Source: Microbacterium sp. (GTDB lineage: Bacteria > Actinomycetota > Actinomycetes > Actinomycetales > Microbacteriaceae). From it: a DNA stretch of 64,000 bases. The notes beneath the pieces were generated by a model that saw nothing but the letters and a program-made list of their open reading frames with translations, had not been told where the DNA came from and made no database searches. The DNA is taken from contig NZ_JAPLAI010000066.1 of assembly GCF_026393345.1 (NCBI RefSeq), positions 28,955 through 92,954 of the forward strand, read 5' to 3'. A program made the translations under genes and the position numbers. Position 1 is the stretch's first letter, and each line of letters begins with the position of its first letter. Shown piece after piece: positions 13,431 through 20,120 of the stretch.

Positions 13431-18235
<4,805 letters not shown>

Positions 18236-18303
18236 ACCGCCGCCGGACTGTAAGTCCATGTCACTCACCGCAGCAATCACGCTAGACGCTATGGGTATTG
18301 AGC

Positions 18304-18383
18304 TGAGGCCTCCTGTCGCATAGACCGTGGATTACGGGCTGGGTGTGCCGGCTCGTAGTGCCACATATGTGAAGGAGGCCTCA
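18304..18383 (+). promoter_or_regulatory. Inverted repeat that could sequester the SD of the IS110-type relic
   Basis: tgaggcctcct (18304-18314) is complementary to aggaggcctca (18373-18383), which contains the SD; GTG start at 18384; palindrome cacatatgtg at 18362-18371. Confidence 0.45.
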
Positions 18384-18818
18384 GTGTCTATTGAGCGTAC
18401 GAGTGTTGGGCTGGGTGTGCACGCGCGCACCACAGTTGGAGCGGCGATCGACGAGCAGACGGGAGAGCTCGTGCAGCGTCGCATGGGCGCCGGCAACGCC
18501 AAGCAGATCGTCCTCCTCGGCAGCGCTAACGCTAAAAAGAAGGGGTCCGACGGCACCTCGTTCCTTGCCCACGAGGTGAAGGTGATGGCGGAGTTCGACC
18601 TGCCCATCGTGGTCGCCAACCTCGACGGCGACCGCACCATCGACCGCAACTTCATTCCGGACCCGCTGCTGGCGGCGGACTACTACACCCTGTCAGTGTC
18701 GTTCCAGCCCTCGATCATCAAGTATGCGCTCGACAACTAGGCGCCCGGGTTTGCGTCCAGCGACGCCAAGGGCCCGCACTACTACAAAGAGCACGTGTAC
18801 ACCCAGCTCGGCCTGTGA
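18384..18818 (+). pseudogene. Chimeric relic: IS110-family transposase N-terminus fused to a TIR-like (Thoeris ThsB-like) C-terminal fragment, with internal TAG
   Basis: VSIERTSVGLGVHARTTVGAAIDEQTGELVQRR (IS110-like) then AKQIVLLGSANAKKKGSDGTSFLAHEVKVMAEFDLPIVVANLDGDRTIDRNF...YYTLSVSFQPSIIKYALDN; TAG 18738-18740, in-frame APGFASSDAKGPHYYKEHVYTQLGL then TGA 18816-18818. Confidence 0.55.
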
Positions 18819-18930
18819 TGGAGTCCGTACGTCGCGACATCCGTACCCGGCGTTTCTGGAAGATCCTCGCCACTCAGGCGTTCGCGCTCTTCGGCGCCCT
18901 CGCCGGTGTGGTGCTCACTCCGGAACGTAG
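18818..18930 (+). pseudogene. Truncated transmembrane partner protein of the TIR-like gene
   Basis: TGATG overlap with the TIR-like stop; MESVRRDIRTRRFWKILATQAFALFGALAGVVL (TM segment), then low-complexity Arg-rich translation leading into the repeat array. Confidence 0.4.
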
Positions 18931-18965
18931 AACTCTGATCCGCCGGCCCGGGGCGGCGCGCCGGT

Positions 18966-19047
18966 CTACTGACAAACTTTTGGCACCGGGGACAAGGTTT
19001 TGGCGCTACTGACAAAGTTCTTGGCAGCACTGACAAAGTTTCTGGCA
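18966..19047. mobile_element. Transposon-end-like array of ~20-21-bp imperfect direct repeats
   Basis: ctactgacaaacttttggca / ccggggacaaggttttggcg / ctactgacaaagttcttggca / gcactgacaaagtttctggca. Confidence 0.55.
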
Positions 19048-19247
19048 ATCGGACAGTTACGGCGACGACGCGTCGGAGCCTCTGCGCCCGCGCCACGGCG
19101 GAACCGATGCATCTGCTATGAATCACGAAAAGATAACGGCGAAGCCTTCCGCCCGTTACCTTTCCGTTATAGAGTGCTCAGCACGGTAGTTGTTTTGCTG
19201 TGGCAGCTACCGGCATGTGATTGCAGGAAATCTCTGGTGCAAGGGAC

Positions 19248-19281
19248 AAGAGCCGGTCGGAAGCCTCCCCGCCCGGCTCTT
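19248..19281. terminator. Stem-loop
   Basis: aagagccgg ... ccggctctt, followed by cttggttt. Confidence 0.45.
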
Positions 19282-19367
19282 CTTGGTTTCCGCACCCGAG
19301 ACCCCTTGTATGGCGAAGTATCGCGGCGGAGTGGCGGGCGAGCGGGCCCGCGCTCTAGCGTCATGCT

Positions 19368-20120
19368 GTGCCACCCGAGCCGATCCCTGCCGCCGCGCCC
19401 GACCGCATCCCGCCGACGACCGTGCGGTGGCGCGCGTCGCTCCCCCCGCTGCCCGCCGCGCTGGGTGAGCATGCGGGCCTCGACATCGCGTTCCACCCGG
19501 ATGCGGCCGACCCGCTCGCGGTGCCCGCCTTCGCGGACCTCGTCGCGCACCTCCGCGCCCAACAGATCGTGCGCGCCCTATCCGCACGCACGAACCGGGT
19601 CCTGGCCGGCACCCGCGTGTCGGTTCTCGGCGACGGCGTGCTCGCCGACGCGATCGCCGACGCCCTCACCCGGCTCGGCGCGCGCGTGACCCTCGCCACC
19701 GACTCTCCCGCCGCCGCACTCCGCGCCCGCATCCGCGGACGCGCCGTCGTCGGAAGGGATGCGGTCGCCGCTGCCCCCGCGGAACACCTGGTGGCCACGG
19801 GCGAGGGTCACACCCCCTTCGACCCCGCCGGCATCGCCGCGACCGCGATCGACGCGTCCTTCCTCGGCGGCGCCCTGGTCACCTCGGCCGCGGGAGAGCC
19901 GATACGCGCCGGGGTCGTACGGCATGGCGCGGGCTGGATCGTCGCGTCGCCGAGCCTGTGGCCGGAGGCCGACGCGACCGACCTCGAGCGCCGCGCGGCC
20001 GACGCGTTCCTCCTCCTCAGCCGGCTGTCAGCCGATACGGCTCCATCCCGTGACGCAGCCGATCCAGCCAGTGACGCAGCCGATCTCGACGCCCGCTTCG
20101 CCCGGGAGGTGCAGGTATGA
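19368..20120 (+). CDS. Rossmann-fold protein, possibly distant S-adenosylhomocysteine-hydrolase-like paralog
   Basis: LAGTRVSVLGDGVLADAIADALTRLGARVTLATDSP nucleotide-binding pattern; overlaps the downstream SAHH-like gene by 4 nt. Confidence 0.55.
   Translation: MPPEPIPAAAPDRIPPTTVRWRASLPPLPAALGEHAGLDIAFHPDAADPLAVPAFADLVAHLRAQQIVRALSARTNRVLAGTRVSVLGDGVLADAIADALTRLGARVTLATDSPAAALRARIRGRAVVGRDAVAAAPAEHLVATGEGHTPFDPAGIAATAIDASFLGGALVTSAAGEPIRAGVVRHGAGWIVASPSLWPEADATDLERRAADAFLLLSRLSADTAPSRDAADPASDAADLDARFAREVQV

What the first reader, a model, noticed from the sequence alone, without database searches (positions are those of the whole stretch)
18384..18930. Decayed TIR-like + membrane-protein operon (possible type II Thoeris-like defence remnant) behind an IS110 relic
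Seen: GTG-started reading frame with an IS110-type N-terminus (VSIERTSVGLGVHARTTVGAAIDEQTGELVQRR), then a different sequence QIVLLGSANAKKKGSDGTSFLAHEVKVMAEFDLPIVVANLDGDRTIDRNF...VSFQPSIIKYALDN. A TAG follows, but the same frame continues sensibly (APGFASSDAKGPHYYKEHVYTQLGL) to a TGA that overlaps an ATG (TGATG) of a second gene encoding MESVRRDIRTRRFWKILATQAFALFGALAGVV, a basic N-terminus plus TM helix, truncated soon after. Knowledge: TIR-like ThsB proteins have a 'hEh..al....PIIAVNLnG.R' stretch and end near a 'hISFq.kIIqYALDN' segment; type II Thoeris pairs TIR proteins with a TM-macro effector. Inference: a TIR + TM-effector operon was 5'-truncated by IS110-related recombination, gained an amber mutation, and lost the effector 3' end. 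An intact homologous pair elsewhere may be an uncharacterised TIR/TM-effector system.
Basis: partly seen in the sequence, partly recalled or inferred. Interest (0 to 1): 0.8.

Follow-up and report, generated by a model that had tools for sequence, protein, structure and literature searches.

The report
Dead fragment of type II Thoeris

Summary
Window 18495-18818 encodes residues 63-169 of a 169-aa TIR protein, with one amber codon at residue 144. From ATG 18818 follow the first ~31 residues of a ~284-aa membrane/macro-domain protein. PADLOC models name them ThsB2 (E 1.5e-48) and ThsA2 (E 8e-5). Intact relatives in Microbacterium, Mycolicibacterium, Curtobacterium, Agromyces and others have the same gene order and hit Pfam ThsB_TIR and ThsA_Macro. 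The closest solved structure is EcThsB2, 8V6T (E 2.4e-35 for the remnant alone). So this is a decayed type II (TM-macro) Thoeris operon, a published system (PMC11204291; PMC12847820), not an uncharacterised one. The 5' side (18282-~18490) is the left end and N-terminus of an IS110 element, with a 4-bp AACG microhomology at the joint. The 3' side ends ~18912 next to four ~20-bp repeats of unknown origin. The TIR lost its active-site Tyr8 and first 62 residues, the effector its whole macro domain, and the genome assembly holds no other copy. Low dN/dS against intact relatives says the decay is recent. Ordinary; low interest.

The parts
18282..18490 (+). IS110-family relic: left-end non-coding stretch plus the first ~35 codons of the transposase (reading frame from GTG 18384); the Asp of 'GLDVH' reads Gly here
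   Evidence: 81% DNA identity over 18282-18488 to an IS110-type element in a family relative (L019) whose transposase frame runs ISERTSVGLDVHARGTVAAAIDERTGELVQRRMGSG; a homologous open frame of 358+ aa in L022 hits Pfam DEDD_Tnp_IS110 and Transposase_20
18489..18498 (+). Joint between IS110 relic and thsB remnant; AACG common to window, IS110 relative and intact thsB
   Evidence: three-way comparison; blastn boundary at 18495
18495..18818 (+). thsB remnant: residues 63-169 of 169 of a ThsB2-type TIR protein, with TGA stop 18816-18818
   Evidence: PADLOC PDLC00440 ThsB2 E 1.5e-48 with amber as X; PDB 8V6T E 2.4e-35; residue numbering
18738..18740 (+). TAG nonsense codon at ThsB residue 144, Tyr in nearly all intact relatives
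18818..18911 (+). thsA remnant: first ~31 residues (basic N-terminus and start of the first TM helix) of a ~284-aa TM-macro ThsA; the rest is replaced
   Evidence: 28 of the first 31 residues identical to L002 ThsA; PADLOC ThsA2 E 8.4e-5
18966..19047 (+). Four direct repeats (CTGACAAAnTTnTTGGCA type) at 18971, 18991, 19011, 19032, right of the thsA break; possibly the end of another mobile element, identity unknown
   Evidence: no second copy in 150 family genomes or plasmids

Best explanation
A type II Thoeris operon (thsB TIR gene followed by thsA TM-macro effector gene, ThsB subfamily of E. coli ThsB2) once sat here and has been destroyed. A deletion fused the first codons of an IS110 transposase to thsB codon 63, a nonsense mutation arose at codon 144, and a second break replaced thsA after about codon 31. 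The intact system is published to work as follows: the TIR protein responds to phage and makes an ADP-ribose signal (His-ADPR), which makes the TM-macro ThsA oligomerise in the membrane and disable the infected cell. The copy here cannot do this: the TIR lacks its first 62 residues including active-site Tyr8, a translated product would stop before the C-terminal tail, and the effector has no macro domain. Shown: sequence identity, losses, absence of another copy in the assembly. Inferred: order of events and loss of function.
For: PADLOC ThsB2/ThsA2 hits for the remnant and full-length hits for intact relatives; Pfam ThsB_TIR and ThsA_Macro for relatives; same gene order and stop/start overlap in L002 and L003; DNA identity of 82-83% across both genes; PDB 8V6T EcThsB2 E 2.8e-83 for the intact relative and 2.4e-35 for the remnant; ThsA macro structures 8V6Q/8R66 match the neighbour. 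Tyr8, Glu89, Tyr159 and Tyr164 numbering coincides with EcThsB2. No other ThsB_TIR, TIR_2 or ThsA_Macro in the genome. dN/dS ~0.07-0.08 against L002 and L003 means that nearly all divergence arose while the gene was under selection, hence recent decay.
Against: Pfam does not score the remnant itself as ThsB_TIR (only a sub-threshold, unrelated YpM match), because the N-terminal half of the domain is missing. The genome is a draft (81 contigs, 88.9% complete), so the amber codon or a joint could in principle be an assembly artefact, and an intact copy could lie in unassembled sequence.
Confidence: 0.96

Rival explanations
1. The IS110-ThsB fusion frame (118-137 codons, ending at TAG) is an expressed, functional small protein, for example a decoy or regulator of some other TIR or phage signal.
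For: The fusion is in frame and open up to TAG 18738-18740; the fragment keeps Glu89 and low dN/dS.
Against: An in-frame joint is expected one time in three. Tyr8 and the N-terminal half of the fold are gone. Deleting residues 151-169 of EcThsB2 already made it insoluble (PMC11204291), and here everything after 143 is lost. No sigma-70-like promoter was seen, no partner exists in the assembly, and the low dN/dS mostly reflects time before the breakage.
Confidence: 0.02
2. The breaks or the amber codon are draft-assembly errors and the living strain has an intact type II Thoeris operon.
For: The source is an 81-contig, 88.9%-complete draft; mobile-element debris flanks the remnant and is a typical place for misassembly.
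Against: The locus lies well inside a contig with normal coding on both sides; both ends of the operon and the amber would all have to be errors; no missing thsA macro part is found on any other contig.
Confidence: 0.02

Closest known systems
Type II (TM-macro) Thoeris, ThsB2 of E. coli CFT073 (PDB 8V6T; ThsB subfamily 9 of Shi et al. 2024, PMC11204291) and its ThsA (8V6Q)
   Same: ThsB2-type TIR of 169 aa in intact relatives with Tyr8/Glu89 and the conserved C-terminal tail; downstream TM + macro ThsA
   Different: The window copy is truncated at both ends and interrupted by a stop. E. coli CFT073 has two ThsB genes, whereas most actinobacterial relatives found here have only the ThsB2 type.
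Intact Thoeris operon of Microbacterium azadirachtae ARN176 (L002) and Mycolicibacterium komossense (L003)
   Same: 82-83% DNA identity across the thsB/thsA joint, same TGATG overlap
   Different: Intact: 169-aa ThsB and 284-aa ThsA
IS110 family (DEDD transposase)
   Same: N-terminal ~35 residues and left-end sequence, 81% DNA identity to a related element (L019)
   Different: Only the left end remains; the Asp of GLDVH reads Gly; no right part of the element next to the remnant

Membership tests
Type II (TM-macro) Thoeris | TIR-domain ThsB | tested here: met
   remnant PADLOC ThsB2 E 1.5e-48, PDB 8V6T E 2.4e-35; intact relatives over Pfam ThsB_TIR cut-off
Type II (TM-macro) Thoeris | adjacent ThsA with N-terminal TM helices | tested here: met
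   first ~31 residues present, PADLOC ThsA2 E 8.4e-5; 28/31 identical to L002 ThsA
Type II (TM-macro) Thoeris | ThsA macro domain | tested here: not met
   absent from the window copy and from the assembly; present directly downstream in intact relatives. So this is a remnant, not a working member.
Type II (TM-macro) Thoeris | active-site Glu and the Tyr typical of TM-macro ThsB | tested here: not met
   Glu89 kept, Tyr8 lost with residues 1-62; both present in intact relatives
Type II (TM-macro) Thoeris | phage protection through a His-ADPR-type signal | not testable with these tools
   literature only (PMC12847820, PMC11204291)
IS110 family | DEDD RuvC-like transposase | tested here: inconclusive
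   37-residue fragment too short for Pfam; homologous open frame in L022 hits PF01548 and PF02371; DNA relative L019

The most novel reading that the evidence does not exclude
The in-frame IS110-ThsB fusion is expressed and kept as a truncated TIR protein with a new role, such as a decoy for a TIR signal or a phage trigger.
Probability: 0.02. Interest if true: 0.4.

Novelty: new member of a known kind. Interest (0 to 1): 0.12.

Why it matters
It adds one clear case of recent loss of a type II Thoeris operon flanked by mobile-element debris. It also shows that annotation by Pfam alone misses such a remnant, while PADLOC models and reading past one stop find it. It does not point to an unknown system.

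Tried and rejected
Pfam on the remnant gave only a sub-threshold match to YpM, a structurally unrelated fold, seen also with intact ThsB2 proteins and with PDB YPM chains at E 0.02-0.05; treated as chance. NCBIfam gave nothing useful. Rfam gave nothing in 18200-19500. The 3' repeats could not be assigned: no copy in 150 family genomes, none in plasmids, and the single 24-bp hit L032 lies in an unrelated coding region. A search for a sibling genome with an empty or intact site, through the flanking MFS gene, gave at best 72% identity outside the genome itself, so no close relative with the same neighbourhood was found. No structure prediction was run because sequence models already decide the question.

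Full report
Observation.

Identity of the first gene. The segment occurs intact in other actinobacteria: Microbacterium azadirachtae (94% identical over 77 residues), Mycolicibacterium komossense (91%), Curtobacterium, M. resistens, Gulosibacter, Agromyces, M. pyrenivorans, Rarobacter and Nocardia, 5 other genomes of the family among 400 sampled, and plasmids, where it is annotated as TIR domain-containing protein. The intact protein has 169 residues and begins MSYRNKTYVAFASEDI. It matches PADLOC ThsB2 (E 5.4e-93) and Pfam ThsB_TIR over cut-off and the crystal structure of E. coli ThsB2, 8V6T (E 2.8e-83). The window remnant itself, with the stop as X, matches PADLOC ThsB2 at 1.5e-48, and its 78-residue core matches 8V6T at 2.4e-35.

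Identity of the second gene. In most of the intact relatives the next gene starts at or over the thsB stop and encodes about 284 residues with N-terminal hydrophobic stretches and a macro domain: Pfam ThsA_Macro, PADLOC ThsA. The window's second frame equals the first ~31 residues of this protein (28 of 31 identical to L002) and then diverges.

What is lost. Numbering against L002: the remnant starts at ThsB residue 63; TAG is residue 144, a Tyr in nearly all relatives; Glu89 is kept, Tyr8 is lost. Tyr8 and Glu89 are the active-site pair described for EcThsB2, and the C-terminal tail (151-169) was needed for soluble protein (PMC11204291). The ThsA macro domain is absent here and is found nowhere else in the assembly; no other ThsB_TIR or TIR_2 protein is present. 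The copy is therefore taken as dead.

Age of the decay. Against L002 and L003 the remnant differs at 33-36 synonymous and 12-13 nonsynonymous codons (dN 0.066-0.069, dS 0.80-0.98); the two intact genes differ from each other at 35 and 18. Most divergence thus predates the breakage.

The two ends. Left: 18282-18488 is 81% identical to an IS110-type element in another genome of the family, whose transposase frame continues past the point where the window switches to thsB. The switch lies in 18489-18498 with AACG common to all three sequences. A homologous open frame in L022 hits the IS110 transposase domains. Whether IS110 activity or ordinary microhomology deletion made the joint cannot be told. 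Right: similarity to thsA ends near 18912; four ~20-bp repeats follow at 18966-19047. They look like the repeated ends of a mobile element, but no relative was found. Beyond lie an AcrB-like/MFS efflux pair on the left and SAH-hydrolase-like and amidohydrolase genes on the right; there is no sign of a defence island among these neighbours.

Mechanism of the intact system (literature). TIR proteins of type II Thoeris exchange the nicotinamide of NAD+ for imidazole or histidine (PMC11364022), and His-ADPR makes the TM-macro ThsA oligomerise and perturb the membrane (PMC12847820; PMC11204291). This was not tested here.

Verdict. It is a decayed member of a known, characterised defence system, of low interest.

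Noticed in passing
genomes of L002, L003, L005, L007, L009, L010, L013, L014, L015: In 9 of 13 genomes with the type II Thoeris pair, the ThsB2-type TIR is the only TIR protein detected with PF08937 and PF13676. E. coli ThsB2, of the same type, showed no NADase activity in vitro (PMC11204291); so in these actinobacteria this TIR type probably has to make the signal alone.
   Followed up: partly
L004 (G457:C65:20472-20756): In Curtobacterium sp. UCD-KPL2560 a second TIR protein (TIR_2, 343-codon open frame) lies divergently ~0.7 kb upstream of the Thoeris pair.
   Followed up: no
L008 5312-5909 and beyond: In Mycolicibacterium pyrenivorans thsA is split by frame changes: another decayed copy or a sequencing error.
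   Followed up: no
L010 (G462:C18:10231-11810): In Nocardia flavorosea thsB and thsA lie on opposite strands, facing each other, instead of in one operon.
   Followed up: no
window 18966-19047: Four direct repeats of ~20 bases (CTGACAAAnTTnTTGGCA type), not found elsewhere; origin unexplained.
   Followed up: partly
L005 4806-5312 and other ThsB2 proteins, residues ~64-138: Sub-threshold Pfam YpM match (best E 1.2e-4, 22.7 bits against a cut-off of 25); probably chance, as the folds differ.
   Followed up: no
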